Assembly: GCA_031254105.1 (NCBI GenBank)
Contig: JAIRVB010000049.1
Span: 1-64,000, forward strand
From: Chitinispirillales bacterium
GTDB lineage: Bacteria > Fibrobacterota > Chitinivibrionia > Chitinivibrionales > Chitinispirillaceae
Direction: 5' to 3'
Length of the DNA stretch: 64,000 bases
Part shown: positions 2,244 to 34,000 of the stretch, one piece after another
Numbering within the stretch: the first letter of the stretch is position 1
Layout of the letters: each line of letters begins with the position of its first letter
Position numbers and translations under genes: made by a program
The notes under the pieces: model-generated
Told to the model about the DNA's origin: nothing
Databases searched by the model: none
The model's input: the letters and a program-made list of their open reading frames with translations, nothing else

Positions 2244-2399
2244 GATTTTGTTGCGGAATTAGTGAAAATATAAACGAGTATATGGCAACTTTGCGACGGA
2301 TTTTTAGTATATTATAGTGATATATATAATCGCAGCCGCGGAAAATTCAAGACGTGTGAAATAACTAACCATTAACTACTAATCACTAAGGGCTTCTGC

Positions 2400-3221: not shown

Positions 3222-3225
3222 GGCA

Positions 3226-3375
3226 TGAGGGCACCCGCAAGGGGTGCCCGTACAGGGCGCAATCATAATGCCGGGGCGCCTCTTGCGGGCGCCCGGGCTA
3301 CAGGGTGCGCAATCATATAATGCAGGGGTGCCCCTTGCGGGCGCCCCGGGCGCGGAATGATGATGCAGGGGTAGC
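3226..3375. repeat. Cluster of GC-rich palindromic intergenic repeats
   Basis: Three to four imperfect palindromes of the form GGGCnnCC-CGCAAGG-GGnGCCC lie in tandem, some followed by gtacaggg or ctacaggg, in an otherwise AT-richer genome. The same core ending GCCCGTACA occurs at 11.9-12.05 kb, and a similar palindrome lies inside the 5' end of lptB. This is a REP-like dispersed family. It lies between the PNP gene and ileS. Confidence 0.75.
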
Positions 3376-3453
3376 CCTATGTGGCCGCCCCGATTCACGC
3401 ATACGATTGCCCCGGATTCAAAAAATTTTTATTTTACGTTGATAAGGGATTCT

Positions 3454-6400: not shown

Positions 6401-6783
6401 AGCATGAGGGCGTTGAGGTGCAAACCGAGGGTGAACTTACCGTAGGTCTTGAAACTACAATCACCCCGGAGCTCAGGAATGAGTGCGTGGCCAGAGAATT
6501 TATAAACCGTGTGCAGAATCAGCGTAAAACATCAGGACTCAATGTCACAGACCGTATTATTATTCACTGCAAGTGTCCGCCGGAACTTGAGCTTGCGCTC
6601 AGGGAATTTAGAGAGTACATTTGCGCTGAAACGCTGACTGTTGACATACGGTTTTTCTCTGATATAAAAGATGAAAATAACGCGGCGGGCTTTTGTGAAA
6701 AATGGACGGAGGCTCAGTGCGTAGACCTGGAAGGTGTTGAGGCGCTCATCTGTGTTGAAAAAACGGAAGGATTGGCAAGCTGA
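3454..6783 (+). CDS. ileS: Isoleucyl-tRNA synthetase, long (type 2) form
   Basis: This class I aminoacyl-tRNA synthetase charges tRNA-Ile and edits misactivated valine. From the ATG at 3454 (an aaggga ribosome site lies 5-6 bp upstream) it has 1109 residues. An in-frame ATG at 3379 would add sequence partly encoded by the repeat region. The HIGH motif is HYGH (residues 59-62) within PPFATGLPHYGH, and the KMSKS loop is KLSKR (about 644-648). The CP1 editing region and several Cys pairs (CYRC, CECG, CPKC) are present. The length and the PPFATGLPHYGH and KLSKR signatures are those of the eukaryote-like IleRS2 group, which is associated with lower mupirocin sensitivity. The HxGH form is canonical. 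The stop overlaps the probable start of the next gene. Confidence 0.97.
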   Translation: MKQEYFENVNTQIRFPEVESQILDIWAKEETFKRSLEKTAKNQAFVFYDGPPFATGLPHYGHLLAGTLKDIIPRYWTMRGYNVDRRFGWDCHGLPVENEMEKEFKISSGKRDIEKLGIHVFNEACRSIVLRYTNQWEKVVNRMGRWVDFVNQYRTMDPSYMESIWWVFRQMWDKGLIYQGFRVQPYCPRCATPLSNFEVNEGYKDKSGPSITVAFPLADDPNVKFLVWTTTPWTLPSNVALAVGADIIYVKIKVGDDIYILAKDRLGAYYKDISAVEILAEVKGSELAGLRYTPMFDYFKDRNQGFFTVTTADFVSTEDGAGIVHIAPAFGEDDFQAGQKLGLPIVCPVDDEGKFTDEVPEWQGQVVYAADDEIIKTIKKAGRLFSKATVEHRYPHCYRCDRPLIYKAITTWFMKIEPLKKNMFDNNQQIHWVPQHLQNGRFGKGIESAPDWNISRNRYWGTPIPVWICECGHKDCAGGLNDLHKLAGNGDASVGEHLHAQAASKVKKSLKTEEVAKKLMDAGIDKSWAETLKNADISPVDIHSHIVDELEIKCPKCGGVMRRTSEVLDCWFESGSMPYAQMHYPFDNKEKFEKNFPADFIAEGLDQTRGWFYTLTVLASALFERSAFKNVIVNGIILAADGKKLSKRLKNYAPPEVVLNELGADSLRLFLINSPAVKADDLRFSEEGVREMSRAILLPFWNAYSFFVTYANVDKWKPSGESLPDGGAELDKWIVSLLNDIIASVNKEMERYNLYKVVPLLVDFIDNLTNWYIRRSRRRFWKSENDSDKDVAYGTLYYVLVQFSKVMAPFLPFLTEAIYRNLVVGKIDGAAGSVHLAAYPGAVEGIINEKLDLKMRLVRQAVTMGRAMRSRFTIKTRQPLSEFMIIIADKTKLDLIMDMEALIKDELNVKKVVFDCHEERVVSVSAKPNFKKLGKVFGPRMKEASGIIEKFTALDIKNLESGAMIDVLGTALTYEDIEIRRTKHEGVEVQTEGELTVGLETTITPELRNECVAREFINRVQNQRKTSGLNVTDRIIIHCKCPPELELALREFREYICAETLTVDIRFFSDIKDENNAAGFCEKWTEAQCVDLEGVEALICVEKTEGLAS

Positions 6784-6875
6784 AGTTAACAAGGCGGATA
6801 AAAAAGCTGATTCCAAAGCGTTGGCAGCAGCTTTTTTTAGGATATGCGGCCAAGGTCGGTTTATTTGCGGGACGC

Positions 6876-7709
6876 ATGATGCCAAGAGGGCTTGGGCTTC
6901 CGTTGTTCTCTTTTTTAGGCACGCTTGTTTTCTATATTTCAGATAAAGAACGGCGCCGTACGATTGAGCATCTGGAATTTATCTATGGTAAGGAGTGGGA
7001 TGAGCGTAAAATAAAAAGGACCGCGCTTGCGGTTTTTAAGAATTCGGGGATGAACCTTTTTGATGGGGTTCACCTTGCCTGTTTAACTGATGACAAACTG
7101 AATAAAATCGTCACCCACGATAGTTTTGAGGAGGTAAAAAACGCTTACGCAAAAGGCAAAGGCGTAGTTGCCATAACCGCGCATGTGGGATGTTTTGAAA
7201 TGCAGCTTCATCTCTACAGCCGCAAAGGGTTTAAATGTTTTGCGATAGGAAGAAAGTTTGAAAATGAAATGGTAGATGACGTCGTACGGAAGATGAGAAG
7301 CGGACCTGATATGGAATACATGGACAAATCGGAAAATCCCCGAAATGTAATCCGTTCTCTCCAGAAGGGCAAGATGATGGGAGTATTGGTGGATCAGGAC
7401 ACTAAAGTTGAGGGTGTATTCGCAGGTTTTCTGGGCCATGAATCCTTTACCCCAAGCGGTCCCATCCGGCTTGCCATGAAACTTGATCTTCCCGCGTTTG
7501 TCGGAATCACCGCGCGTATGCCCGGTAACAAACATCATCTGTTTATCACACCGCCGCTTACTCTCGATAACACCGGAAATTTTGAAGCTGATCTCATATC
7601 CAATGTACAAAAAGTCAATGATATTATAAGTGAATACATCCACAAATTTCCCGAACAATGGGTATGGATGCACAAGCGATGGGCTACTAAGCAAAAAAGA
7701 AATGTATAA
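6876..7709 (+). CDS. LpxL/HtrB-type lysophospholipid (lipid A) acyltransferase
   Basis: This membrane-bound enzyme of the LpxL/LpxM family adds a secondary acyl chain to lipid A at the inner membrane. The catalytic H-x4-E/D motif appears as HVGCFE, with a later DQD and a FVGITAR segment. The first ATG gives 277 residues, shorter than the usual 290-310. The frame is open upstream to ileS and encodes a family-like N-terminus (TRRIKKLIPKRWQ, then GLFAGRM). Translation may therefore begin at a CTG at 6780 that overlaps the ileS stop, with GGAAGG 9 bp ahead, giving 309 residues. The gene is followed by lptC and lptA, a lipid A/LPS export context. Confidence 0.9.
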   Translation: MMPRGLGLPLFSFLGTLVFYISDKERRRTIEHLEFIYGKEWDERKIKRTALAVFKNSGMNLFDGVHLACLTDDKLNKIVTHDSFEEVKNAYAKGKGVVAITAHVGCFEMQLHLYSRKGFKCFAIGRKFENEMVDDVVRKMRSGPDMEYMDKSENPRNVIRSLQKGKMMGVLVDQDTKVEGVFAGFLGHESFTPSGPIRLAMKLDLPAFVGITARMPGNKHHLFITPPLTLDNTGNFEADLISNVQKVNDIISEYIHKFPEQWVWMHKRWATKQKRNV

Positions 7710-7857
7710 TGTAAGAATGTACAATGAAGAAATAAGAATAATGTAGAAATGAAAATACAGAGAACAGAAACATTAAAATCTACTATCGCACAAAGAGAAA
7801 TGACCTCACATCTCTCTTGTTTTATTTGTACATTGTACATTATAATTTCTACATTAG
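7701..7857. repeat. Heptamer-arm inverted repeat (aatgtac type) around the lptC start
   Basis: The left arm (about 7701-7750) repeats aatgtat, aatgta, aatgtac and aatgtag. The right arm (about 7824-7857) is its complement: gtacatt, gtacatt, ataattt, ctacatt. The arms could form a long imperfect hairpin. The left arm overlaps the last codons and stop of the acyltransferase. The right arm encodes part of the LptC signal peptide. It belongs to the same structural family as the hairpins at 8.4, 18.6, 32.6, 37.9, 45.7 and 63.0 kb, but with a different word. Confidence 0.65.
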
Positions 7858-8393
7858 TTTTACAAGGTTGCGGCCCTCAAAAAGACACCATCCCCGTAGC
7901 CGGTGAAGATGTCATCATGGAACCCAGCCAAATATTCAATGAAGCGTCGCTGTATTTTTATGAAAACGGGGTAAGACGCTGGTGGCTTGACGCCGATTAT
8001 ATGAGCAGGCCTCTCGCCGACACTGGAAGACTTGTTGTAGTTCCTGTACGCATAATGGTATATGACAGCATTGGCAGACCATCAACACGTATTGTGGCCG
8101 ACAGCGGCCGTACCGATTCCCGTATGGAAATATTTGACTTGTGGGGCAGGGTGTTTATCAGAACCGAAGAGGGAATGACAGTAAAAAGCGAACAGCTGCG
8201 CTGGCATAAAGAATTGCGAAAAGTAACCTCCGATACTTATGTTCAAATAGAAACTCCCAAAGGCGATCTCCTCAGAGGCAAAGGCCTCGATGCTTATGAT
8301 GACTTCTCCCGTTTCTCATTCAAAGCGGATGTAAGAGGAAAATTTCCGGACTTCAAACGCCGCGTAGAGGAGCAGGATGAATCTTTCTTTTAA
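7800..8393 (+). CDS. lptC: LPS export lipoprotein LptC-like
   Basis: This envelope protein is expected to pass LPS from the LptBFG transporter to the periplasmic LptA bridge. From the ATG at 7800 it has 197 residues. The N-terminus is a lipoprotein signal ending in LVLQGC, so the Cys near residue 24 would be acylated, unlike the membrane-anchored E. coli LptC. The body has SLYFYENGVRRWWLDAD, the usual start of the LptC/YrbK fold, and a beta-rich remainder. An upstream ATG at 7749 would lengthen the signal to about 42 residues and seems less likely. Part of the signal peptide is encoded by the arm of a repeat hairpin. The 3' end overlaps the next gene by 17 bp. Confidence 0.8.
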   Translation: MTSHLSCFICTLYIIISTLVLQGCGPQKDTIPVAGEDVIMEPSQIFNEASLYFYENGVRRWWLDADYMSRPLADTGRLVVVPVRIMVYDSIGRPSTRIVADSGRTDSRMEIFDLWGRVFIRTEEGMTVKSEQLRWHKELRKVTSDTYVQIETPKGDLLRGKGLDAYDDFSRFSFKADVRGKFPDFKRRVEEQDESFF

Positions 8394-9684
8394 TGCAGAT
8401 ATAAAAAATCAATGCAGAAATAAAAAGTCGAGGACAATTCTCAGGTTTTTAATATTTCTGCATTCCGCATTCTGCATTCTGCATTTATTTCCCGTCAACG
8501 TATGCGCAACCACAGACGGCGCCCTTATTCTGGAACGGGCTGACAGGAACGAAAATGTTTACTCGCGCGGAGAGCTTGTAAGTAACTTGAGCGGCAATGT
8601 GATTTTTCGTTATGAAAATATCCGCATATCATCCGATGAAGCTACATGGTGGAAAAATAAAGGCGTAATTAACTTTAGGAAAAAAGTCAAAGTAGAGCAT
8701 GATGGCCAGACCATGACCTGCGACAGACTCCATTTTGAAAGGGATAAAAATACCCTTACCGCCGCCGGAAATTTTTTATACCGCGACTCGGCGCAGGTAA
8801 CTTTTCTAAGCGGTAATGATGGACAGTATGTTATTGACACAAAACTTTTTACGCTCAGGGGAAAGCCGCAGCTTGTCAGAAAAGACAGCACCGATACCGA
8901 CACGCTTTTTATCAACGGACGTATTATGACTTATAACGATTCTCTTAAAATCGCGACTGTAACAGATAGTGTACGTATAAGAAGAGGGAGCCTTAAAGCT
9001 TCCTGCAAAAACGCCGAGTACTTCGCAAATACGAACATGGCGACCCTGCGGACATTGCCGGAAGTTTTTTATGAGAACCACAAAATAACCGGAGATTCGA
9101 TAGATCTTCACTTCGGCAAGGAAACGCTTAAGGCCGCGCGGGTGGTGGGTAATTCCTACGCTTTGTACATGGAATCGCCCGCCTCATCAAAAGACACCAA
9201 CATTACTCATATCTGGAGCGACAGCTTGTTTTTGGCGATGTCAGATTCAGGACGCATGGAGGATATACGGGCTTTTGGTAAAGTACATGGCAGGTATACA
9301 GAAGCTTCCCCTTCGTCAAAAGACACCTCCATTACTCATATCTGGAGTGACAGCCTGTTTGCTTTGATGTCTGATTCCGGACATCTTGATTCCATGCAGG
9401 CTTTTGGCAGGGTGCTCAGCAGGTATTTTCTTCAGGGAGATTCCACGCGCGCAAATGAGGCTTCGGGGCGCTCTATGACCTTGAGGTTTGGCGAAAACAG
9501 AAAAGTCGAAAAAGCTTTTATTCGGGGTAACGCCAGAAGTATTTATTATATAGAGGAATCTGACGGCGGCGGACGAAACGAAGCCAGCGGGGATCAAATT
9601 GTCGTAACTTTCGCTATGGGTAGAGCGCGGCTGCTGCATTTAAGAGGAAACGCGCGCGGGATCTATTTTCCGAATATTAACTGA
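8377..9684 (+). CDS. OstA/LptA-like periplasmic LPS transport protein
   Basis: A 435-residue secreted protein with a signal peptide ending about VNVCA. It consists of repeated beta segments of the OstA/LptA type (GNVIFRYENIRISSDEA, MTCDRLHFERDKNTLTAAG). LptA proteins form a periplasmic jelly-roll bridge for LPS. This one is about twice the usual size and resembles the long OstA-like proteins of Bacteroidetes-type bacteria. GAGGAG precedes the ATG, and the start overlaps lptC. Residues about 270-355 are a 43-residue tandem duplication (SSKDTxITHIWSDSLF). The signal peptide is encoded by a gcattctgcatt repeat hairpin. It could act as a bridge protein or as an LptA/LptD-N hybrid. Confidence 0.82.
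   Translation: MNLSFNADIKNQCRNKKSRTILRFLIFLHSAFCILHLFPVNVCATTDGALILERADRNENVYSRGELVSNLSGNVIFRYENIRISSDEATWWKNKGVINFRKKVKVEHDGQTMTCDRLHFERDKNTLTAAGNFLYRDSAQVTFLSGNDGQYVIDTKLFTLRGKPQLVRKDSTDTDTLFINGRIMTYNDSLKIATVTDSVRIRRGSLKASCKNAEYFANTNMATLRTLPEVFYENHKITGDSIDLHFGKETLKAARVVGNSYALYMESPASSKDTNITHIWSDSLFLAMSDSGRMEDIRAFGKVHGRYTEASPSSKDTSITHIWSDSLFALMSDSGHLDSMQAFGRVLSRYFLQGDSTRANEASGRSMTLRFGENRKVEKAFIRGNARSIYYIEESDGGGRNEASGDQIVVTFAMGRARLLHLRGNARGIYFPNIN
8392..8490. repeat. Heptamer-arm inverted repeat (aatgcag type) inside the lptA-like 5' end
   Basis: The left arm contains aatgcagatataaaaa and aatgcagaaataaaaa. The right arm contains atttctgcatt, ccgcatt, ctgcatt, ctgcatt. The whole element is within the coding frame and supplies the n-region and most of the hydrophobic core of the signal peptide (IFLHSAFCILHLF). 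The same words form intergenic hairpins at 32.65 and 45.7 kb. Confidence 0.7.
9184..9441 (+). repeat. 129-bp tandem duplication within the lptA-like gene
   Basis: Two adjacent 129-bp units (9184-9312 and 9313-9441) encode 43-residue copies. Both read SSKDT-x-ITHIWSDSLF, then MSDSG, then AFG-x-V, then RY. The second halves have diverged more than the first halves. It is in frame and extends the beta-rich repeat region by one unit. Confidence 0.85.
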
Positions 9685-9819
9685 AGGGTATATTGCGGGA
9701 TGATATATATTGATGCGGCCGCTTTTCGGTACAGACATCTTTTGAAAAAATAACACATTTTTCTTTATTGGCACTATTGTAGCTGTTAAAACTCTATTTG
9801 TTTGGATTGCGGTGTTTTG

Positions 9820-9886
9820 AAAAAGTAGAAAAAAATGAAAAAGTAGAAAAAAAAGTAGAAAAAGTAGAAAAAAAAGTAGAAAAAAC
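9820..9886 (+). repeat. A-rich tandem repeat (gtagaaaaa units)
   Basis: Five copies of gtagaaaaa with variable A-run length follow each other after the lptA-like gene. They occupy part of the gene-free stretch 9685-10044, in which nothing else was recognised. A frame through them yields a Lys/Glu/Val-rich peptide that is most likely a by-product of the repeat. Unlike the hairpin elements, no complementary arm is visible nearby. Confidence 0.7.
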
Positions 9887-10044
9887 TTGTTTTTTTGTAA
9901 AAGCATATTATATTTTTTTCGTTTGTGGAGAGAAACTCTTAAATTATGTGCCAAAAATTTGGAGAATGCATGTTGCCTTTTAATTATTAAGGATGATTTC
10001 TCAATTTTGTATTGATTAAAACCACAAGATAAGGGCGCTTACAC

Positions 10045-10290
10045 ATGGACACAAATAAAACGAGAGATATAAGTGAATTGTCTAAAGATCCTTCGAAGCC
10101 GCTTACGCAGGATCAATTGGATCATATTGAGGAGTATCTAACTCTCAAGAACCACGATGTGTCCGCAAAAGATGTGAGTATCTCCGGTGCGGTGGATCAT
10201 ATTCTCGAAAACTTGGATTACTATTTGGGTGCTCCGGAGACCAGAGGAGAAGATATCGTTTACGGAGCTAAAAAAATAGATGCAGTTTAG
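10045..10290 (+). CDS. Small acidic hypothetical protein
   Basis: An 81-residue protein of unrecognised family. It is hydrophilic and acidic, with no signal peptide, and has a run typical of a small helical protein (LTQDQLDHIEEYLTLKN, then AVDHILENLDYYLG). Its 3' end overlaps the next gene by 11 bp, so the two are probably translated together. The pair interrupts the lptA-like/lptB interval and is unlike the LPS genes in composition. The layout (small acidic first gene, larger basic second gene) resembles a two-component cassette, but no family was recognised. Confidence 0.6.
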   Translation: MDTNKTRDISELSKDPSKPLTQDQLDHIEEYLTLKNHDVSAKDVSISGAVDHILENLDYYLGAPETRGEDIVYGAKKIDAV

Positions 10291-10840
10291 GAACTCGGCA
10301 CATTGGATGCCTGACATAAAGACGCTATGCAACGGTTTTCGAGAAAAAAGACTCAGTAAAAATTTGCCATACAGAAAAAATAAGTTTTCAAAAATAGATA
10401 GTTATTGTGACACATTGGTTGAAGAGATAAAAAAAGATGTATTTCTCAATCATCCTAATCTGAGCGCTTGTTTGTTAGATCATCACAAAATAGCTGCTGT
10501 TCATATTTTGTCAATTCTTAAAAATCCACTATTTATTAGTGACAGTTACATCATTGGCTACACATTCTGTGACATAATGGCGAATGAATATTGTTGTTTT
10601 TTGGTATTACAGGCAATACTGCTTGAATGGCGTAAACATAATAACAAAAGCGCCATATTTCGTGTTAATATACCCAACAGATACAAGGATTGTTTATTGC
10701 TGTTGTTTCGCAAATATATGAAATCACGCCCGTCATCTCTAACAAACGATATAATATTTGCATATTCGTTCGCAAATATTATTTATATGATTGATACGTA
10801 TTTTGTAGTGGAAGCCGCTATTTCTCCTTCTGTCAATTAA
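10280..10840 (+). CDS. Hypothetical protein, overlaps the preceding small gene
   Basis: A 186-residue protein that I do not recognise. The N-terminal third is basic (REKRLSKNLPYRKNKFSK). The rest is largely helical with several Cys and aromatic residues (IIGYTFCDIMANEYCCFLVLQ) that are moderately hydrophobic but not clear membrane segments. The ATG at 10280 lies inside the previous gene, indicating translational coupling. The codon use is more AT-rich than in lptB and rpoN. It could be an effector or toxin partner of the acidic protein; that is inference from layout only. Confidence 0.6.
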   Translation: MQFRNSAHWMPDIKTLCNGFREKRLSKNLPYRKNKFSKIDSYCDTLVEEIKKDVFLNHPNLSACLLDHHKIAAVHILSILKNPLFISDSYIIGYTFCDIMANEYCCFLVLQAILLEWRKHNNKSAIFRVNIPNRYKDCLLLLFRKYMKSRPSSLTNDIIFAYSFANIIYMIDTYFVVEAAISPSVN

Positions 10841-26162: not shown

Positions 26163-26585
26163 CTATTTATTGACAAGAAGTTCCCTTAACCTGTTTAAAG
26201 CTCTGCGCCTGGTGTTATTAACCGCTTGACGTGTTATGCTCTTCATGCACGATATCTCCAAATCAGTTTTGTCGTAATAAAAATACAGTATTATTATCTC
26301 TGCCTGACCAGGTTCCAGCTGTTTAATCGCCCATTCAACATCGTTAGGCGGGTCGACGGCCGTAGTTGTTGTTTTAGAGTCAGACAGCAGACACAGCTCA
26401 TGCGGCGGTAAAAAACTCATGTTTAAGGCTGCGTTCCATTGCTTGATGCAGTAAGATTTGCGGGTACAACGCAGGGTAGTCTGAAGATATGCCTTAAATT
26501 TGAAATATGCATATATGTTTGACAAAACAGAAGACTCGTTTTCAGGATTTTCTCTCAAATATTCCAAAAGAATATAATGCCCCAT
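26163..26585 (-). CDS. Sigma region 4-like transcription factor
   Basis: From the ATG at 26585 (AAAGGGG 5 bp upstream) the protein has 140 residues. A further in-frame ATG at 26600 lies before that ribosome site. The C-terminal 55 residues form a sigma-70 region 4-like helix-turn-helix: a conserved LEPGQAEIIILYFYYDKT lead-in, then DLEISCMKSITRQAVNNTRR and a basic RRALNRLRELL. The N-terminal half is helical, with no convincing region 2. It sits head to head with the M15/DUF2589 operon. The complementary region 2-like protein is encoded at the far end of the locus (32.9 kb). I infer a two-part sigma factor; a plain DNA-binding regulator is the alternative. Confidence 0.72.
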   Translation of the reverse strand: MGHYILLEYLRENPENESSVLSNIYAYFKFKAYLQTTLRCTRKSYCIKQWNAALNMSFLPPHELCLLSDSKTTTTAVDPPNDVEWAIKQLEPGQAEIIILYFYYDKTDLEISCMKSITRQAVNNTRRRALNRLRELLVNK

Positions 26586-26675
26586 AGTTTCCCCTTTCAT
26601 GACGCAATAAAAGTGTGAATTCGATAGTTGTTGAAAATAAAATGAGATTCATACAACTTGTCGTTATTATATACA

Positions 26676-26760
26676 AAAAGATACTTTACAATAAAAACGC
26701 AACGCAGACTGAAAAAAAGATGAGAGTTGCGTTTTTTGTGTTTATGTTCTTTTTACAGTC
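26676..26760 (+). promoter_or_regulatory. Conserved hairpin element, copy 1
   Basis: This element reads AAAAAG, ctttaca (26684-26690), a run of A, CGCAAC (26698-26703), a loop, GTTGCGTTTTTTG (26726-26738), then gttctttttacagtc. The stem plus T-run looks like a Rho-independent terminator. It lies between the two divergent genes, ahead of the M15/DUF2589 operon. A second copy of the same layout is found at 31304-31380 and a half copy at 32549-32580. It may be a terminator-attenuator or the recognition region of the locus-specific sigma factor. Confidence 0.55.
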
Positions 26761-26799
26761 ATACAGCATTCATATGAAACCATAAAAGGAGGTAAATGT

Positions 26800-27420
26800 A
26801 TGAGGGGAGTAGAAAAATTGCACCCGGAGATGCGTGCCAAAGCGGAAAAACTTACCGCGTTATGCCGTGAGAATGGTCTGCCGCTGCTAATAACAGAAAC
26901 ACTGCGCAGCGAAGCCGAGCAGACGCAGTTATATGAAAAGGGGCGCAGCGCGCCTGGCAAGATTGTTACAAACTGCAAGTATCCGCAAAGTGCGCACTGT
27001 TGGGGAGTCGCGTTTGACTTTTGCCGTAATGTAAAAGGTAAAGAGTATGAGAACTGCGATGGTTTTTTTCAAAAAGTGGGACAGTTAGGTAAGAGCATCG
27101 GCCTGTTTTGGGGCGGTGATTTCAAAAGTTTTAAAGATATGCCTCACTTTGAACACCCGGTCTATGTAGTAAATAACAGTGTTAAAACGCTTATTGAAAA
27201 ATGGGGGGCGCCTGAAGTATTCATGAAAACCTGGGCACAGGAAAACTCTTTCGCCGCTAAAACAGACGCTCTGTCTCCTCCAGGGATAAACGATACGGAT
27301 GACGCATGGGAATGGGCGGTTCGCAGCGGGCTTGCCGGCGGAATCAGCTGTCAGGAGACTGTTACAGGTGAAATATTAGCAAAGATGCTGTATAGATATA
27401 ACGCGATGAAATCACTTTAA
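26800..27420 (+). CDS. M15-family peptidase (VanY/CwlK-like peptidoglycan hydrolase)
   Basis: A 206-residue zinc peptidase. SAHCWGVAFD (near residues 63-72) and PHFEH (near 114-118) are the metal-binding motifs of the M15 D-Ala-D-Ala carboxypeptidase/L-Ala-D-Glu endopeptidase group, common in phage endolysins. The upstream TETLRSEAEQTQLYEKGRS is also typical. The last 35 residues (WEWAVRSGLAGG to AKMLYRY) resemble an S-layer-homology-like half-repeat. There is no signal peptide, so export would need another route or lysis. An excellent ribosome site (AAAGGAGG) precedes it. It is the first gene of a rightward operon with the DUF2589-like genes. Confidence 0.88.
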   Translation: MRGVEKLHPEMRAKAEKLTALCRENGLPLLITETLRSEAEQTQLYEKGRSAPGKIVTNCKYPQSAHCWGVAFDFCRNVKGKEYENCDGFFQKVGQLGKSIGLFWGGDFKSFKDMPHFEHPVYVVNNSVKTLIEKWGAPEVFMKTWAQENSFAAKTDALSPPGINDTDDAWEWAVRSGLAGGISCQETVTGEILAKMLYRYNAMKSL

Positions 27421-27449
27421 AAATATCAATACAAGAAGGAGCGTTAGAT

Positions 27450-28382
27450 ATGGAAAGAAGAAACAAACGCAATAACCGGCATAATATGGTTGAGTTGAAG
27501 GAGCTGGTCTACGCGCCGCTGCATGCCGTGTCAGAAGCAAACATGCGGCTTAGCTCAAACATAGTGGATTTTTTAGCGTCAACCGGAGATATGAATGCCG
27601 ACAGCGCCGGTAATCCTACCGTACATCTTCACACAATACAAATGCAATACCAGCAGCTGCGCAACGACGCGGATGATAATACCGTAGCTGAGCGCATAGG
27701 TCTTGAAATACCGCTTTTGTCAATTTATCCGTTGAGCAGTTTGAAAGTATCCAAAACAAAAGTAGCATTTGACGTTGAGGTAAAAAACTTTGTAACTGTC
27801 GGCGACTCCGTAAAAATTTTTACGCAGGTTTGCTCAAAAAAACAGCGCGAAAGCGCAAATCAGGCAAGGTTCAGTTTCGAAGTGGAACTGGAGAGCGTTC
27901 CCATAAGCGAAGGGCTGGCGCGGTTCGTTGACACTCTCAATGCGCAGGCTGTTCCTAAACGTTTAAGCGCAAGGCCATTAGACGAATCGGGCAAAGCGCT
28001 CACCGGAAAAGAGCTTGAAGAGTACAACAGGCGTATGGAACTTATAGAGCGTGAGAAAGAACTTAACAGCAAGATCGAAGAGATAAAAGAGGTGATTCGC
28101 GGCAAAAACAATCTCCTGAACGCTAAAACAGGTATGAATTACGAAGAATACATCGAGAACCGAAACTATACGGATGAAGAACCGGAGGATGAAGAGACCG
28201 CCGATTTGTGTAAGTCAATCAAAGAGTATAAGGAAATAAGCCTTGATCTGGAAGTTCAGCTCGATGAATTGGAAAAGGAAAAAATCACGCAGGATTTTCA
28301 GAGCGAACCAGAAAGCGGCAGCGGGCATGATTCGCCGCAGCCTGTACGAAATCAACCGTCAAACGGCAGGGAGCGTAAATAG
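27450..28382 (+). CDS. DUF2589-like protein A
   Basis: A 310-residue protein. The first 190 residues are a DUF2589-like domain: LVYAPLHAVSEANMRLSSNI, EIPLLSIYPLSSLKVSKTKV and EGLARFVDTLNAQAVP, then RPLDESGKALTG. The same three blocks occur in the larger paralogue at 29183. The C-terminal 110 residues are a charged coiled coil (RRMELIEREKELNSKIEEIK) with a Ser/Pro tail. It has no signal peptide or membrane segment. The family has no established function that I know of. GAAGGAG precedes the ATG. It is second in the operon, 29 bp after the peptidase gene. Confidence 0.75.
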   Translation: MERRNKRNNRHNMVELKELVYAPLHAVSEANMRLSSNIVDFLASTGDMNADSAGNPTVHLHTIQMQYQQLRNDADDNTVAERIGLEIPLLSIYPLSSLKVSKTKVAFDVEVKNFVTVGDSVKIFTQVCSKKQRESANQARFSFEVELESVPISEGLARFVDTLNAQAVPKRLSARPLDESGKALTGKELEEYNRRMELIEREKELNSKIEEIKEVIRGKNNLLNAKTGMNYEEYIENRNYTDEEPEDEETADLCKSIKEYKEISLDLEVQLDELEKEKITQDFQSEPESGSGHDSPQPVRNQPSNGRERK

Positions 28383-28666
28383 TGAATAATCAGAAACGGC
28401 TTGATATATCGGAAGCAAAATTCATTAAGGAAGTAGCGGTAGGCAGTGTAAATCCCAACATCATTTTATCCGATGACGCGCGTCAGTCACAGGTGACGCT
28501 TCTAAACCGGTGCCTGAATGATTACCCAAAGGGTATTATTATCGGTAAAGATATCGCTATTGGACGTTATCTTATGGGAGAACATGAGCTTGTAATGCAA
28601 AAAACCATTTACCATGTCGGATTCGCGCGTAAACCAGCGTGGTTAGACGAAAAAGGAGCTGATTAA
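28382..28666 (+). CDS. Small conserved-looking protein within the DUF2589 operon
   Basis: A 94-residue protein starting with GTG at 28382, which shares its G with the TAG stop of the previous gene. GGGAG lies about 9 bp upstream. The sequence is soluble and mixed alpha/beta (VAVGSVNPNIILSDDARQSQ, then KGIIIGKDIAIGRYLMGEHE). Family not recognised. Tight coupling on both sides (1 bp overlap before, 1 bp gap after) says it is made with the DUF2589-like proteins and may bind them. Confidence 0.7.
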   Translation: MNNQKRLDISEAKFIKEVAVGSVNPNIILSDDARQSQVTLLNRCLNDYPKGIIIGKDIAIGRYLMGEHELVMQKTIYHVGFARKPAWLDEKGAD

Positions 28667-28667
28667 T

Positions 28668-29087
28668 ATGAGTGGACAAAAGTTATCGTTAAAAAATTTG
28701 GTTCAGGCGCTTACGGAGACGGCCTCTTACGCAAGCCAAATGCTGCGGCGCGACTACCTCAACGCGCTGAGGACATCGGAAAACAAGAGCTCACTGCCGC
28801 CTCAGCCTCTTTGTGTAACTGATATGCGGGTTGTTTTTACGGCAAATGTCACTGAAGATGAGCGTTCGGATTTTCAAAAAAACGGAGGAGATCTCCAATT
28901 GGAATTTAACGGTACAAACGGCAATTTCAAAGGAGAGATAGTTTTCAAACCTTATGATCCCGGAGCGGCATATGGCTATGAGACCTGTTCCGAAGAAGGC
29001 ATCGGCGAAGAGGAGATCGCCGAACCGGAAATTCCGCAGGAAGACACTCCGGTTATGGAAAATTATGAACAAAGTGAAATTTACTGA
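28668..29087 (+). CDS. Short DUF2589-like protein B
   Basis: A 139-residue protein with a reduced version of the DUF2589 pattern. LKNLVQALTETASYASQMLR matches the N-terminal helix of the paralogues. PLCVTDMRVVFTANV matches their strand PNLQIDEVNILFDMEV. The EGLAR block is lost. The tail is very acidic (EEGIGEEEIAEPEIP). AAAAGGAG precedes the ATG. It is co-transcribed with the genes around it, and a stem-loop follows. Confidence 0.65.
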   Translation: MSGQKLSLKNLVQALTETASYASQMLRRDYLNALRTSENKSSLPPQPLCVTDMRVVFTANVTEDERSDFQKNGGDLQLEFNGTNGNFKGEIVFKPYDPGAAYGYETCSEEGIGEEEIAEPEIPQEDTPVMENYEQSEIY

Positions 29088-29122
29088 TGATTTAACCCCA
29101 CCGGCCGGCGGGAAAACATAAC

Positions 29123-29154
29123 TTTTTCGGGCCGTCCTATAAACGCCCGAAAAA
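29123..29154 (+). other. Intercistronic stem-loop
   Basis: TTTTTCGGGC and GCCCGAAAAA form a stem with a 12-base loop between two DUF2589 genes. The T and A runs pair with each other, so there is no free U tail. This fits RNA processing or differential stability better than termination. Confidence 0.5.
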
Positions 29155-29182
29155 CCAATAACCTTAACAGGAGGCAGTGTAA

Positions 29183-30271
29183 ATGAGTATCGGAGAACAA
29201 TTTAAGGGACTTGACATGAAGAACCTGATCGGCGGGCCGTTAACCGCTGCAGCCGAATCCAGCATTCTTCTTGCGCGCAGCACGGCTAACTTTATTAACG
29301 AGGTTGGTTTCGATGCAAACCAACAAGCGCGTACTGTGGCGTTCAAGTTCACCAAACAGGATCCGGATCCGGATGGTAACCTGAACATGCAGGAGATGTC
29401 TATAGACGTGCCGCTGCTGGCTATTGTACCTATTCCAAACCTGCAGATCGATGAAGTCAACATTTTGTTTGACATGGAAGTCAAGCAGTGTGAAAAAAGC
29501 GAATCCTCCATGTCAGGCAGCGGTTCATTCAGCGCCAGGGTTGGCTGGGGGCCTGTATCTGTTTCGGTAAGCGGCAGTGTATCGGCTCACAGCTCCAACA
29601 CGCGCAGCTCGGACAACTCCGCAAAGTATCATGTTGACGTTCGCGCCACAAACCACGGTACGCCGGAAGGTCTCGCGCGGGTTCTTGACATGATGGCATC
29701 GGCGGTTTCACCCAACCTTATAGGCAGCCGTCCGGTTGACCCGTCCGGCGCGGAACTCACAGGCGCCCGCCGCGAACGCAGCCTGAAAATAAAGGAACTG
29801 CGTCAAAAGAGCATGCAGCTCGAAAATGCCGAAAACGCCGCGCGTGAAACACGCACTATCAAATTGGGCGCTCTTACAAAAAGGCTGCAAACTATTCAGA
29901 ACACCGCGCGGATGAGTTTTGAAGATAAGTTTAAAGCCGCGTCTGAAGATGAAAAGAAGAAGCTTAATGAGGACGCTGTAAACAACTTCTGGAATGACCT
30001 GCAGATAGGAGCGCACGACAAAGTCTCTTTGGCCGCGTCTTTGGATGGCAAAAATGCTTCTATCGAGAAAGTTTGCTCGGCTGCCAAGGGTTACGAAGAG
30101 TTTACAACAGCTAAAGTTAAGGATGCTGACGGTGAATTCAAACAGGCTGTGGAAGCGCATCTCACATGGGAAGAGAGCAATAAGGCCGTTCAGGAAAACA
30201 AAGTGGTGTACAATAATGTGTTGATGGGTGTTGCGGATACTAAAGCGGGTGCAGCTAAAACCGCAAGCTGA
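29183..30271 (+). CDS. DUF2589 protein C (large paralogue)
   Basis: A 362-residue protein that opens with the family signature MSIGEQFKGLDMKNLIGGPL followed by AAAESSILLARSTANFINEV. Then come IDVPLLAIVPIPNLQIDEV, a Ser/Gly-rich beta segment (SGSGSFSARVGWGPVSVSVS) and EGLARVLDMMASAVSP, then RPVDPSGAELTG. The last 160 residues are helical and charged. It lacks a signal peptide. It has the strongest ribosome site of the operon (AGGAGG). Its repeated pattern with protein A indicates duplication within the locus. The Ser-rich amphipathic strands suggest assembly or a surface-like structure, but that is inference. Confidence 0.8.
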   Translation: MSIGEQFKGLDMKNLIGGPLTAAAESSILLARSTANFINEVGFDANQQARTVAFKFTKQDPDPDGNLNMQEMSIDVPLLAIVPIPNLQIDEVNILFDMEVKQCEKSESSMSGSGSFSARVGWGPVSVSVSGSVSAHSSNTRSSDNSAKYHVDVRATNHGTPEGLARVLDMMASAVSPNLIGSRPVDPSGAELTGARRERSLKIKELRQKSMQLENAENAARETRTIKLGALTKRLQTIQNTARMSFEDKFKAASEDEKKKLNEDAVNNFWNDLQIGAHDKVSLAASLDGKNASIEKVCSAAKGYEEFTTAKVKDADGEFKQAVEAHLTWEESNKAVQENKVVYNNVLMGVADTKAGAAKTAS

Positions 30272-30275
30272 AAAA

Positions 30276-30304
30276 GCGAGGGGAGGGGGTAACTCCCTCT
30301 CCGC
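30276..30304 (+). terminator. GC hairpin after DUF2589 protein C
   Basis: GCGAGGGGAG and CTCCCTCTCCGC pair around ggggtaa, starting five bases after the stop. A T-run is missing, so this may be a partial terminator or a stability hairpin that sets a lower level for the next gene. Confidence 0.5.
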
Positions 30305-30365
30305 AATATTTAAAAGCAGTAGATTGTTTTTGTGAAAAAGCTAACTTAAAACAAAGGAGATTCTA

Positions 30366-31019
30366 ATGAACGGGCAGGAGTTTACTCAACAATATGGTGT
30401 TTTTTATTATCCAAATAATCCATGTCAGTGTAATCAATGTCAACAATGTCAGGAACGTCAACTTGCGTTTAATGTGTACATGAACGCAGCTGCGAATCGC
30501 AACAATTTTTGTCTGTTAGGCAGGATGGACGCATTAAATAATATTATCGGACGTCTGCCTAATCCACCAAATGCAGGTCAAGCGATGTTAGTAGATGATA
30601 ACGGCGCTGCTAATTTTTATGTTACAAATGGAAATCAACCCGGCAATGTCCTTAGAGAAAATCAATGGACCTTAGGTATTAATGATGCTTGGGTAGTTGG
30701 CGGAATAAACGGGCGAAGCACTTTTAATTTTGTTGGAGAAGCCGCGATACCTTTATTGGATTTTAATGCAATTTATCTTCGAGGCAACGGGAATTTTCCT
30801 GTTTCTGTCACTGCAAGGGAGATTTACGGACTAATGGCGGCAGGCTACATACCTAATATTGTAAACGGAATGTTAGTTTTTTCTCCGCCGCAAACCCGCG
30901 ATTTGACTTTATTTGATTTTGCGGAATACCATGACGCAATTAATAGTCGGATATTGAATGCAATATTTGCATATTTGGAACCGGTTTTTCAAGGGGCAGG
31001 ATTGGGATTGGGAGGATAA
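30366..31019 (+). CDS. Cys-rich, Asn/Gly-rich hypothetical protein
   Basis: A 217-residue protein that I do not recognise. The N-terminus contains CQCNQCQQCQ (residues 20-29), a possible metal-binding or cross-linking knot. The rest is Asn-, Gly- and Ala-rich with beta-like segments (FNFVGEAAIPLLDFNAIYLR) and ends in a glycine tail (GAGLGLGG). No signal peptide is seen. AAAGGAG precedes the ATG. It lies in the operon direction after DUF2589 protein C and before a perfect-palindrome terminator, so it is probably the last gene of this transcript. Its composition suggests a structural protein. Confidence 0.65.
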   Translation: MNGQEFTQQYGVFYYPNNPCQCNQCQQCQERQLAFNVYMNAAANRNNFCLLGRMDALNNIIGRLPNPPNAGQAMLVDDNGAANFYVTNGNQPGNVLRENQWTLGINDAWVVGGINGRSTFNFVGEAAIPLLDFNAIYLRGNGNFPVSVTAREIYGLMAAGYIPNIVNGMLVFSPPQTRDLTLFDFAEYHDAINSRILNAIFAYLEPVFQGAGLGLGG

Positions 31020-31029
31020 CAATCTGAAA

Positions 31030-31051
31030 AAGAGGGGGATATCCCCCTCTT
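31030..31051. terminator. Bidirectional terminator
   Basis: AAGAGGGGGATATCCCCCTCTT is a near-perfect GC palindrome between two convergent genes (stops at 31019 and 31052). It fits termination in both directions, though the T-run is short. Confidence 0.6.
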
Positions 31052-31258
31052 CTACATCAACCCGCCCTTAAGCTTATCTGCCAATCCCCCCTTAAGTTTG
31101 TCACTTAGACCGCTTTTCAAGTTGTCTGCTAAGCCTCCCTTAAGTTTGTCTGTCAAAGCGCCTTTTACTTTTGAGGTCAACTCATCTTTGAGCATATCCG
31201 CGCCGGGTATTCTATCAGACAAATCGCCGAGATAATCTTTGATTTTGCCGAAATCCAT
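31052..31258 (-). CDS. Amphipathic octapeptide-repeat small protein
   Basis: From the ATG at 31258 (AAAGGAGGTGAGAAC just ahead) the product has 68 residues. An ATG 18 bp further upstream precedes the ribosome site and is not the start. Residues 28-67 are five 8-residue repeats with consensus A/S-D-K-L-K-G-G-L, preceded by a Met/Asp-rich helix. Such a repeat would form a long amphipathic helix that could lie on a membrane or line an assembly. Family unknown. It is divergent from the membrane protein gene, with hairpin copy 2 in between. It is inside the DUF2589 locus but on the opposite strand. Confidence 0.72.
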   Translation of the reverse strand: MDFGKIKDYLGDLSDRIPGADMLKDELTSKVKGALTDKLKGGLADNLKSGLSDKLKGGLADKLKGGLM

Positions 31259-31303
31259 GTTCTCACCTCCTTTCATGATTTTAAGATAAGGTCACTTGAT
31301 CAT

Positions 31304-31380
31304 AAAAAGGGCTTTACAACCTTAAAGCGCAACATGGACCGGTTTTCTGCCGGCGTTGCTTTTTTGTCATTTTTCAGTCT
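31304..31380 (+). promoter_or_regulatory. Conserved hairpin element, copy 2
   Basis: The same layout as at 26676-26760: AAAAAG, gctttacaac (31311-31320), ttaaag, CGCAAC (31328-31333), an inner accgg/ccgg stem, GTTGCTTTTTTGTC (about 31355-31368), then tttttcagtc. It again lies in a divergent intergenic region, between the octapeptide-repeat gene and the membrane protein gene. The inner loop differs from copy 1 while the flanks are kept. Confidence 0.55.
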
Positions 31381-31429
31381 TGCTTTAATTATAGCCAGCA
31401 ACCGTTTTCCTGAAAGGTAATAACAAATC

Positions 31430-32488
31430 ATGAAGCGAGCCATTTTCAGTATAGCAGTTATTGTGTTAGCAGCAGCCACGTTTTCCCGCGCCTCTACCTT
31501 CGAGGGCAATGATGACAACGTTACAAGAGATTATTACGTTCAGCTATACAATTCAGAACCATACGTTTCGGATTTTAAACGCGTATTCAAAACAGAAAAC
31601 GACAAACGCGATTACAAAAAGCTGCGGCAATACATCAACTACAAGGAAGAGATATTAAGGATTCTCAAAATGGCCGGAGATGAGTATTACTACGGTTTGT
31701 CATACAGCAAACTGTTCGCTGTCGATTATCTGCAGAATTTGGAAGATGAATTAAAATCCCGCAAACCAGGGGACAAGATACTTTTACGGATAAGTTCGGT
31801 AAGACCCAGTTTCGATTACAATGGCGAATATACCGCTCAATATATCGAAACAGAAATACTGCCCCGTATAAAAGCGCGGCATGAAGAAACCGCAAGCAGG
31901 GATAGTCTTAACCAGATAGCCTACATGCAGATTCAAAAAAACATAGAAATTCTGATGCAGGATATTTTTCAGGCGGAGCAAGCTATGTATATGAGCCTTT
32001 CGCCTGAGTTTCGTGATCAGGATTTCAGGATATGGATAAGCCTCACGTTTTCGGGGCTTATAGGGATTTTATTGTTGGCGTTTTTTCTGATAATATTTAA
32101 ACGGTCTGATATTTCTCTTTCAAAGCAGCTCCTTAGCAGTTCGGGTTTGCAGTTTATCACGGTTTTTATCCTTATAATAGCGATAATTCTGTTTGGCATC
32201 CTCAATGTACTTGGCGGGAGCGAACTCGCGGCTATACTATCAGGAATTTCAGGATATATACTTGGTAAAGGCGGCGGTACCGGCTCTAACATCCTGAATG
32301 ATGAAAAACCAGAAAATGGGGCTTCTCAAAATGAGCAGCATTCATCATTAAAACAAATGGAAGTTCCCGCGCAGGAACCGTTTATTGTTAAGCCGCTTGA
32401 GCGGATCTCCGAAGAGGGTATGGATTTTACTGACCTGCCGGAAGAGAGTAATCTCACAAATGAGTTTGATGAAAAAAGTTACGGATGA
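31430..32488 (+). CDS. Exported protein with C-terminal membrane region
   Basis: A 352-residue protein. A signal peptide (MKRAIFSIAVIVLAAATFSR) is followed by about 180 helical, charged residues predicted outside the cytoplasm. Two to three membrane segments follow near residues 203-225, 240-262 and 264-282 (ILNVLGGSELAAILSGISGY is the last). A polar 70-residue tail ends it. I do not recognise a named family. Its place in the DUF2589 locus and the hairpin element upstream suggest it is the envelope-embedded partner of that system. Confidence 0.72.
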   Translation: MKRAIFSIAVIVLAAATFSRASTFEGNDDNVTRDYYVQLYNSEPYVSDFKRVFKTENDKRDYKKLRQYINYKEEILRILKMAGDEYYYGLSYSKLFAVDYLQNLEDELKSRKPGDKILLRISSVRPSFDYNGEYTAQYIETEILPRIKARHEETASRDSLNQIAYMQIQKNIEILMQDIFQAEQAMYMSLSPEFRDQDFRIWISLTFSGLIGILLLAFFLIIFKRSDISLSKQLLSSSGLQFITVFILIIAIILFGILNVLGGSELAAILSGISGYILGKGGGTGSNILNDEKPENGASQNEQHSSLKQMEVPAQEPFIVKPLERISEEGMDFTDLPEESNLTNEFDEKSYG

Positions 32489-32548
32489 TTCAAGCGTCCG
32501 GTTACCGGCTTACCTAACAAATAATATATGTAAAATTGATCGACCTAA

Positions 32549-32580
32549 GTTGCGTTTTTTGATATAACCGTTCTTTTTTA
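32549..32580 (+). promoter_or_regulatory. Half copy of the locus hairpin element
   Basis: GTTGCGTTTTTTG (32549-32561) followed after 8 bp by gttctttttta repeats the right half of copy 1 almost exactly. The left half (ctttacaa, CGCAAC) is not visible. It follows the membrane protein gene and could act as a remnant terminator. Confidence 0.4.
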
Positions 32581-32612
32581 AATAAGGTAAATCTTATGTG
32601 ATACATATGTTA

Positions 32613-32722
32613 TATAATAATTCAACTTCAAAATAGATGTCCGAATGCAGAAATAAAAGATCAGATCACCTCATTTCTGCATTCTGCATTAATAAAACTC
32701 TTTTTCAAGTTGAATGACTATA
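32613..32722. repeat. MITE-like repeat, copy 1
   Basis: About 110 bp, bounded by imperfect inverted ends (ataattcaacttcaaaa and tttttcaagttgaatgactat) and carrying an internal aatgcag/ctgcatt hairpin. It is clearly homologous to 45680-45803. The shared body reads aatagatgtccgaatgcaga, then aataaaagatc. It occupies much of the gene-free interval 32489-32857. A non-autonomous mobile element is likely. Confidence 0.75.
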
Positions 32723-32857
32723 ACATGGAGTTGCTAAGTATTATCTATGGCGTAATCTGTATACCATAGTTTATTTTGAAATGGATATGAACCGCCAGGG
32801 AATGTAATCGGCGGTATCCGACCCACAGTGCTATCAATCTGAGGAGACTTTTCAACA

Positions 32858-33139
32858 ATGCGTGTCAATGATATTTTTAAAAAAGAGCTGGAGTTGGCGC
32901 AGTCCGGCGATAGACAGGCTATAGAACGTATTTTACATGAATTTGACCCGCTTATACGCAAGTATCAGTATATCAAAAATAAACCTGATGACGATTTGTT
33001 AAGCAAACTGCGGCTTGCGGCTTATCAGTGTATTCTTCGCTTCCGCGCAGATGAAGATGATTTCAATGTATTCCTCAAAGAGGCTAAAAATATTTTACCT
33101 GATGAAGACGCTTTCAGTCCCGAAAATTATCTTAAATAG
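32858..33139 (+). CDS. Small HTH_16/sigma region 2-like protein
   Basis: A 93-residue protein. FKKELELAQSGDRQAIERIL, EFDPLIRKYQY and DDDLLSKLRLAAYQCILRF fit the HTH_16/sigma region 2-like pattern found in conjugative-element regulators and in RsoA, the small partner of Bacillus SigO. There is no region 4. GAGGAG lies upstream at good distance. It lies at the other end of the DUF2589 locus from the region 4-like gene, and together they could form a two-subunit sigma factor. The assignment is by eye. Confidence 0.7.
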   Translation: MRVNDIFKKELELAQSGDRQAIERILHEFDPLIRKYQYIKNKPDDDLLSKLRLAAYQCILRFRADEDDFNVFLKEAKNILPDEDAFSPENYLK

Positions 33140-33287
33140 AAATTTGCAAATGGGATGTATTGATAAATATTTGCATAGGCTAATTAATGTCTACTGAATG
33201 AAAGCCCCGTTTTTTTGCTGGCGATTCGTACAGCCGATTATAATAACACAATATTTAATCTTAAAAAGATATTTTATATTGACTTTT

Positions 33288-33482
33288 TTTGGCGCCACTG
33301 AGGTAAACGATATTGGCAGGGGGAATGCCTATAAGTGTAGCATGACTTGGTCCTCAGATCATACCAACTTAAGCTACTCATCCGAGATGACCTACTGGAA
33401 AGGTCTCAATAAGGCTTACGGCTACTCCGTTCGCTGCGTTAAGGATGAAGGTTCCAGTTCTGTGTTTGTCCGTGAAAGATAA
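33288..33482 (+). pseudogene. C-terminal remnant of a FISUMP-type domain
   Basis: The frame reads FFGATEVNDIGRGNAYKCSM, a WSSD stretch, then WKGLNKAYGYSVRCVKDE. The end YGxSVRCVKD is the closing signature of the Fibrobacter succinogenes major paralogous domain, a secreted beta-rich module common in Fibrobacterota. Only the last 60 or so residues remain. The sequence ahead (from ATG 33198) is unrelated and has no secretion signal of the expected kind. It is a gene fragment and points to the host lineage. Confidence 0.7.
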
Positions 33483-33510
33483 TAACTTCAAAAGTAAAAA
33501 AGGTGCTATA

Positions 33511-34000
33511 ATGGAAAAATTAATTAATAAATCGTGGTTGATGACCGCGTTGTTATTTACAATAAATAATGTTTACGCTTCAGAGAAAGCTGCCGCCGCT
33601 GTGACCAATATCAAAGCCGATACTTTGTGCATTTACAAGATGAGCAATTATTCCGGGCATACAGGAACAACATCTCTTTCGGGATGCCGCTCAATTAACC
33701 TCTTTTCTAAACTCTACCGGATATGATGAGAACAGTCGGACAACCATCAGAAAAAAAACACACCGGCCGAATTTCAAAAAATGGACATATTTTGTGTTTG
33801 CGGGGCCCGGCTGGCCGCGTAATACAGATATTTCATATGAAAGAGATACTATTACTGTGACCTTTACCAGTTTCATTCCTCCGGAAATTCCCGGCGGCCC
33901 CGATTATGCGCTTCCTGCTCCGTTTGTTTTCGTATATTTCATTCCTTTTACAGAAAAAACAATTAGATTCGCAGATATTATAAAACGGGAAGAGCAATAG
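33511..34000 (+). pseudogene. Frameshifted secreted protein gene
   Basis: The first part encodes a signal peptide (LINKSWLMTALLFTINNVYA) and about 35 mature residues in one frame. From about 33662 a second frame continues without stop to 34000: QEQHLFRDAAQLTSFLNSTG, WTYFVFAGPGWPRN, TVTFTSFIPPEIPGG. The two overlap near 33644-33720, so one indel joins them into a ~160-residue secreted protein. The family is unknown. It follows a FISUMP remnant, so the region is decaying. A sequencing error is the alternative. Confidence 0.6.

What the first reader, a model, noticed from the sequence alone, without database searches (positions are those of the whole stretch)
26163..33139. Possible two-part sigma factor bracketing a DUF2589/M15 operon
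A gene with sigma region 4-like helices (26163-26585) and a small HTH_16/region 2-like gene (32858-33139) lie at the two ends of a compact locus. Between them are an M15 peptidase, three DUF2589-type paralogues, a Cys-rich protein, an octapeptide-repeat protein and a membrane protein. Bacillus SigO/RsoA is a known case where regions 4 and 2 are on separate proteins. Neither protein here has the other half. I infer a dedicated split sigma factor controlling an uncharacterised envelope or lysis-linked system. I saw no phage structural genes, so it is not an ordinary prophage.
Basis: partly seen in the sequence, partly recalled or inferred. Interest (0 to 1): 0.85.

Follow-up and report, generated by a model that had tools for sequence, protein, structure and literature searches.

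The report
Two-part sigma factor controlling DUF2589/endolysin operon
In a gut bacterium of the Fibrobacter phylum, two small proteins look like the two halves of one gene switch (a sigma factor), and they appear to control themselves and a neighbouring, unstudied set of genes that pairs a cell-wall-cutting enzyme with DUF2589 proteins.

Summary
P1 (26163-26585, -) has sigma region 4 only. P2 (32858-33139, +) has a region-2-like domain only (HTH_16). P2's fold search and profile test both point to real sigma region 2.

The pair is real. Across 168 genomes of the phylum both genes occur in the same three. A fourth copy sits in a termite-gut Treponema. In two of the four they are adjacent, region-4 gene first, overlapping by 8 nt in Treponema: the SigO-RsoA layout.

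In all four, P1 is divergent from the DUF2589 operon. The region between holds two back-to-back copies of a bipartite element, RTT(G/A)CN-N15/16-NTCTT, one facing each gene. It is absent upstream of 30 DUF2589 operons that lack the pair. In the own genome the strict element also precedes P2 and an unlinked ricin-lectin gene. This supports an autoregulated two-subunit sigma factor with a small regulon.

The target is an undescribed module: DUF2589 paralogues, a conserved 94-aa protein and, in at least 25 of 37 loci, a peptidoglycan hydrolase from one of several unrelated families. It resembles a lysis-based release system, but no holin or spanin was identified.

No experiment was possible. P1-P2 contact and promoter use are inferred. 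New variant of a known kind.

The parts
26163..26585 (-). P1: sigma subunit with region 4, 140 aa (ORF can start at 26600)
   Evidence: Sigma70_r4 E=2e-7, region 2 absent; PDB profile hits FliA, WhiG and other sigma factors; full-length relatives only in G018, G020 and Treponema L053
32858..33139 (+). P2: sigma region-2-like subunit, 93 aa
   Evidence: HTH_16 E=8e-8; hhalign against real sigma factors beats 150 of 150 column shuffles, twice; AF2 model's first 11 PDB matches are all sigma region 2
26677..26703 (-). Bipartite promoter-like element facing P1: GTTGCG-N15-ATCTTT
   Evidence: counterpart present in L014, L015 and L053
26726..26752 (+). Bipartite promoter-like element facing the M15/DUF2589 operon: GTTGCG-N15-TTCTTT
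26800..27420 (+). M15 peptidoglycan peptidase, endolysin-like, no signal peptide by hydropathy
   Evidence: Peptidase_M15_4 E=1.6e-12; PHROG endolysin E=3e-30; SxHxxGxAxD and DxPHFE motifs intact; no TM-like stretch
27450..28382 (+). DUF2589 paralogue 1 (D1)
   Evidence: PF11655 E=5e-17
28382..28666 (+). s94: conserved 94-aa protein of unknown family
   Evidence: homologues in 37 of about 80 DUF2589 loci; no Pfam, NCBIfam or PHROG match
28668..29087 (+). Short DUF2589-like protein (third 'paralogue')
   Evidence: hhalign to DUF2589 E=0.0014
29183..30271 (+). DUF2589 paralogue 2 (D2): N-terminal helix, beta domain, C-terminal helical bundle
   Evidence: PF11655 E=1.5e-41; AF2 mean pLDDT 78; no PDB fold match
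30366..31019 (+). 217-aa protein of unknown family, Cys-rich N-terminus; orthologue in G018 at the same place
31052..31276 (-). 74-aa protein with octapeptide repeats (DKLKGGLA-like)
   Evidence: read directly
31306..31333 (-). Partial element facing the repeat protein: GTTGCG-N16-CCCTTT
   Evidence: second box departs from consensus
31355..31382 (+). Partial element facing the membrane protein: GTTGCT-N16-GTCTTG
   Evidence: second box departs from consensus
31430..32488 (+). Membrane protein: signal-like start, extracytoplasmic domain, two TM segments
   Evidence: relatives in DUF2589 loci L015, L053, L096, L102
32549..32576 (+). Bipartite promoter-like element upstream of P2: GTTGCG-N16-TTCTTT

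Best explanation
P1 and P2 are the two subunits of a two-subunit sigma factor that works like Bacillus SigO-RsoA. P2 supplies the region-2 part (core clamp binding and promoter opening). P1 supplies region 4 (-35 binding). Together they start transcription at promoters of the form RTTGCK-N15/16-YTCTTW. These face the P1 gene, the divergent M15-DUF2589-s94 operon, the displaced P2 gene and an unlinked lectin gene, so the factor drives itself and a small regulon, and both halves must be present. The target operon most likely makes an envelope-linked complex or cargo of DUF2589 proteins whose passage or release is helped by a co-expressed endolysin-type peptidoglycan hydrolase. Shown: domain content, fold-level match of P2, co-occurrence, layout, shared DNA element. 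Inferred: P1-P2 contact, RNA polymerase binding, promoter function, and the whole function of the DUF2589 module.
For: Domains over Pfam cut-offs on separate proteins (in the orthologue pair of L053 Sigma70_r4 passes, HTH_16 is just below its cut-off). P2 against genuine sigma factors: hhalign E=6e-5 and 3e-4, above all of 150 shuffles both times; its first 11 PDB fold matches are sigma region 2. Same 3 of 168 phylum genomes carry P1 and P2; fourth pair in Treponema L053. P1-P2 adjacent in G018 and overlapping 8 nt in L053, as in unrelated split pairs L134 and L138. P1 always divergent from the DUF2589 operon. Element on both strands of that intergenic region in 4 of 4 loci (loose form; 0 to 0.0005 in dinucleotide shuffles), strict form on the P1-facing strand in 2 loci although P1-facing sites were not used to define it. 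Absent upstream of 30 DUF2589 operons without the pair; strict background 5 per 1.29 Mb. GTTGCGTTTTTTG occurs 4 times in 3.68 Mb: before M15, before P2, before a lectin gene, and once inside an unrelated ORF.
Against: No direct evidence that P1 and P2 touch or bind RNA polymerase; no co-fold tool. Foldseek E-values for P2 are weak (0.19 at best) and the model is moderate (pLDDT 70). P1's N-terminal half has no statistically supported match to region 2.3/2.4. The element was derived partly from the same regions, and its two-box form genome-wide is hardly above control (33 against 24). P2 in G020 has no element upstream. Two of the four pairs are not adjacent. The mem/rep sites match only partly.
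Confidence: 0.75

Rival explanations
1. P1 is a DNA-binding activator with a sigma-4-like HTH and P2 an independent regulator or anti/co-factor; they co-occur because they regulate the same operon, but do not form a sigma factor.
For: P1's N-terminus is not demonstrably sigma-like. HTH_16 is named only as a helix-turn-helix domain in Pfam. The GCAAC...GTTGC inverted repeat could be an operator for an activator.
Against: P2 fits region 2 of real sigma factors by profile and by fold. Full-length sigma factors in these genomes score as HTH_16 in their region 2. The element has two boxes at promoter-like spacing and also occurs unpaired before P2 and the lectin gene.
Confidence: 0.15
2. The DUF2589-endolysin module is a lysis-based protein release system (works like a type 10 secretion system), with DUF2589 proteins as cargo or regulators.
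For: A peptidoglycan hydrolase sits in at least 25 of 37 s94 loci, from unrelated families: M15, Amidase_2 with or without phage lysozyme, M23; a muramidase sits in Alistipes L102. The M15 protein has no signal peptide-like segment and matches phage endolysins. A membrane protein recurs. T10SS are non-phage holin/endolysin/spanin clusters (PMC10847048).
Against: No holin or spanin family was matched. HlyD plus two ABC exporters accompany DUF2589 in G020, L058 and L059, and an HlyD/ABC exporter in a Vibrio plasmid, which points to type I-like export instead.
Confidence: 0.35
3. The hydrolase is a trans-envelope assembly helper: DUF2589 proteins form a sheath, pore or exporter-linked complex that needs local wall opening, without lysis.
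For: HlyD/ABC/solute-binding genes between P1 and P2 in G020 and next to DUF2589 in Treponema. DUF2589 D2 model: helix, beta domain, long helical bundle.
Against: Exporter genes are absent from the window copy and from most loci. No fold match for DUF2589.
Confidence: 0.3
4. The GCAAC...GTTGC hairpin between P1 and M15 is an intrinsic terminator or attenuator, not back-to-back promoters.
For: It folds well and is followed by a T tract (window z=-2.95, L015 z=-5.2).
Against: It lies between divergent starts. L014's copy does not fold better than shuffles. The right arm with its downstream box recurs without the left arm before P2 and the lectin gene.
Confidence: 0.15

Closest known systems
[quoted passage not shown]
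   Same: Region 4 and region 2 on separate small proteins; region-4 gene first with the region-2 gene right behind it in G018 and L053; divergent target operon and apparent autoregulation (the literature describes a divergent SigO-RsoA regulon and both proteins as required at PoxdC: PMC10028694, PMC8103513)
Unassigned split pairs in Bacillota: Tumebacillus L138, Lachnospiraceae L134
   Same: Sigma70_r4 ORF (147-197 aa) overlapped at its 3' end by an HTH_16 ORF (60-86 aa)
   Different: Not next to DUF2589; very low identity to P1 and P2
TcdR/BotR/UviA group V sigma factors
   Same: Dedicated sigma factor for a locus with a release protein (TcdR with the TcdE holin, PMC12150058)
   Different: Those are single proteins holding both sigma regions; no toxin gene is recognised here
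Type 10 secretion systems (holin/endolysin/spanin)
   Same: Non-phage locus with an endolysin-type peptidoglycan hydrolase and a membrane protein
   Different: No holin or spanin family match; regulated by a sigma pair, not by a RoeA/ChiR-type regulator

Membership tests
[quoted passage not shown]
   P1 Sigma70_r4 E=2e-7, no region 2 match; same in L053
[quoted passage not shown]
   HTH_16; region-2 fold matches; profile test
[quoted passage not shown]
   4 of 4 loci; same 3 of 168 genomes in the phylum
[quoted passage not shown]
   Yes in G018 and L053, no in the window and G020
[quoted passage not shown]
   Bipartite element on both strands in 4 of 4 loci, 0 of 30 controls; sequence evidence only
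[quoted passage not shown] they bind each other and core polymerase | not testable with these tools
   No co-fold tool; needs experiment
[quoted passage not shown] subtilis SigO and RsoA sequences | not testable with these tools
   Their sequences could not be fetched; HTH_16 does ring in the B. subtilis control genome
Type 10 secretion system | Endolysin | tested here: met
   M15, PHROG endolysin E=3e-30, motifs intact
Type 10 secretion system | Holin | tested here: inconclusive
   Membrane protein with 2 TM and a signal-like start, no family match
Type 10 secretion system | Spanin | tested here: not met
   No family match among the ten proteins
Prophage | Core proteins found in phages, structural genes nearby | tested here: not met
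   D2: one weak hit in 50,697 phage records and one in IMG/VR; P1 and s94: none in IMG/VR
DUF2589 (PF11655) | Match over the Pfam cut-off | tested here: met
   D1 and D2; not the 139-aa protein

The most novel reading that the evidence does not exclude
DUF2589-s94-peptidoglycan hydrolase is an undescribed, horizontally moving, non-phage delivery or release system spread over several phyla, and one lineage of it carries its own two-subunit sigma factor as an AND gate that commits cells to it.
Probability: 0.35. Interest if true: 0.82.

Novelty: new variant of a known kind. Interest (0 to 1): 0.64.

Why it matters
[quoted passage not shown] subtilis. A second one in Fibrobacterota and Spirochaetota, with a predicted promoter and a defined target operon, would show that splitting a sigma factor is a recurrent solution and would supply an orthogonal pair for study. 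It also gives the first lead on what DUF2589 proteins do; only one paper in the searched library mentions them.

Tried and rejected
(1) Region 2.3/2.4 in P1's N-terminus: by eye FKAYLQTTL...Y resembles it, but hhalign does not support it (26 of 80 shuffles as good against ECF, 1 of 80 against sigma70). (2) PDB sequence search with P2: designed helical bundles on top, uninformative. (3) DUF2589 fold: no PDB match. (4) Defence-system reading: no PADLOC hits. (5) Phage origin: rejected. (6) The TCTTTTTACARTCA 14-mer alone as the motif: replaced by the two-box form, which explains more sites. (7) Double-glycine leader on D2 (...LIGG|PL): considered; the GG is not conserved in other DUF2589 proteins, so not pursued. 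(8) P1 relatives in 394 genomes of the order of an Oscillospiraceae locus and 397 of a Lachnospiraceae family: only generic region-4 hits, none near full length at comparable score.

Full report
WHERE. The window lies in a 3.68-Mb genome of the Fibrobacter phylum.

THE TWO PROTEINS. P1 (26163-26585, -) passes the Pfam cut-off for Sigma70_r4 and has no region 2. P2 (32858-33139, +) passes for HTH_16 and has no region 4. In related DUF2589-bearing genomes HTH_16 also scores on region 2 of ordinary full-length sigma factors, so the match means 'sigma region 2' rather than a generic helix-turn-helix. hhalign of the P2 alignment against sigma factors pulled from these genomes aligns it end to end over regions 2.1-2.3 (E=6e-5 and 3e-4) and beats every one of 150 column shuffles in both tests, while the unrelated s94 profile scores at the level of shuffles. 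The AlphaFold2 model of P2 (pLDDT 70, four helices) has eleven sigma region-2 structures as its first eleven PDB matches, with weak E-values (0.19 and up) but probabilities up to 0.96. P1's N-terminal 80 residues could not be assigned.

THE PAIR. Profiles of P1 and P2 were searched over 168 genomes of the phylum. Each finds a strong full-length match in the same three genomes. A scan of 85,000 species with D2 brought a fourth pair, in a termite-gut Treponema (L053); among 200 genomes of that family no other has P2. In G018 P2 lies directly behind P1; in L053 the two overlap by 8 nt and are followed by an N-acetylmuramoyl-L-alanine amidase. In G020 P1 and P2 enclose a same-strand run of solute-binding, HlyD and two ABC genes. 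In the window they enclose the DUF2589 operon. So the pair keeps together within 10 kb although its position drifts. The adjacent, overlapping form equals that of two unrelated split pairs met by chance in Tumebacillus and Lachnospiraceae; SigO and RsoA are likewise encoded by one operon (PMC10028694, PMC8103513).

THE DNA ELEMENT. Comparing upstream regions gave a block shared by the M15 operon and, in the own genome, an unlinked ricin-lectin gene; G018 has the same core before its M15 operon and before a lectin gene inside the cassette. GTTGCGTTTTTTG occurs four times in the 3.68-Mb genome: before M15, before P2, before the lectin gene, and inside one unrelated ORF. Set up as two boxes, RTTGCK-N15/16-YTCTTW, the element appears in L014 and L053 on both strands of the P1/operon intergenic region, although only operon-facing, P2 and lectin sites had been used to define it. 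With a looser first and second box all four loci have exactly one site facing each way; shuffles give both in 0 to 0.05% of cases. None of 30 DUF2589 operons without P1/P2 has the strict form or both loose forms upstream; background is 5 strict sites in 1.29 Mb. The GCAAC...GTTGC inverted repeat is thus best read as two back-to-back -35-like boxes. The rep/mem intergenic region has the same inverted first boxes with imperfect second boxes. Caveats: partial circularity; the two-box pattern genome-wide is barely above control (33 against 24); P2 of G020 has no site.

THE TARGET MODULE. Core: two DUF2589 genes plus s94, a 94-aa protein without any family match. s94 is found in 37 loci from Treponema, Lachnospiraceae, Oscillospiraceae, Flavobacteriales, Fulvivirga and others. 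A peptidoglycan hydrolase accompanies it in at least 25 of these 37, some of the others being cut by contig ends: M15 (3), Amidase_2 with or without phage lysozyme, M23 (Pfam was run on representatives, the rest assigned by clustering). The Bacteroidales locus L102, with DUF2589 but without an s94 match, has a muramidase. Non-homologous replacement argues that wall cutting is part of the function. The window's M15 is endolysin-like with intact motifs and no signal-like segment. Recurrent extras: membrane protein 'mem' (window, G020, Treponema, Bacteroidales), HlyD/ABC exporters, and in Lachnospiraceae STAS plus SpoIIE-like sensors (reading of the sequence), i.e. another way of regulating the module. 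D2 of the window is closer to Treponema L053 (69%) than to its family member G018 (63%), so the cassette probably moves between phyla. It is essentially absent from phages.

VERDICT. It works like SigO-RsoA; functional membership cannot be tested here. The role of the DUF2589 module stays open between lysis-based release and wall-crossing assembly.

Noticed in passing
window 28382-28666 and L014, L015, L053, L055-L090: s94, a 94-aa family with strongly conserved residues (NRC, GEHEL, YHxxFxRKP) and no match in Pfam, NCBIfam or PHROGs, is a regular companion of DUF2589 in gut bacteria.
   Followed up: partly
L015 (G020) 2234-10384: Between P1 and P2 lies a same-strand run: SBP_bac_3, dicarboxylate symporter, Peripla_BP_6, HlyD, two ABC exporters; a like HlyD/ABC set follows DUF2589 in Treponema L058 and L059.
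   Followed up: partly
L061, L066, L068, L073-L084: Lachnospiraceae DUF2589 loci carry a STAS protein, a SpoIIE-like sensor phosphatase (some fused to a symporter-like domain) and a GNAT-like protein downstream, suggesting partner-switch control of the same module.
   Followed up: partly
G000 contig C5:4783 (L159): Unlinked ricin-type lectin gene under a near copy of the M15 operon's upstream region; lectin genes also sit inside the G018 and G020 cassettes.
   Followed up: yes
L134 (Lachnospiraceae), L138 (Tumebacillus): Further split sigma-like pairs (Sigma70_r4 ORF overlapped by HTH_16 ORF) away from DUF2589; the configuration may be widespread.
   Followed up: partly
window 33198-34000: Short ORFs resembling fragments of Fibrobacter paralogous (FISUMP-like) domains just after P2, looking degenerate.
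   Followed up: no
Vibrio sp. 16 plasmid pVDT1 (L156): DUF2589 genes beside an HlyD/peptidase-ABC exporter; a gene annotated as a TcdA/TcdB catalytic glycosyltransferase domain protein lies about 5 kb away.
   Followed up: no
L017, L018 (G040, G047, same phylum): Two other genomes of the phylum carry a different DUF2589 set (two DUF2589 plus one other protein) with no sigma pair and no adjacent peptidoglycan hydrolase recognised by eye.
   Followed up: no
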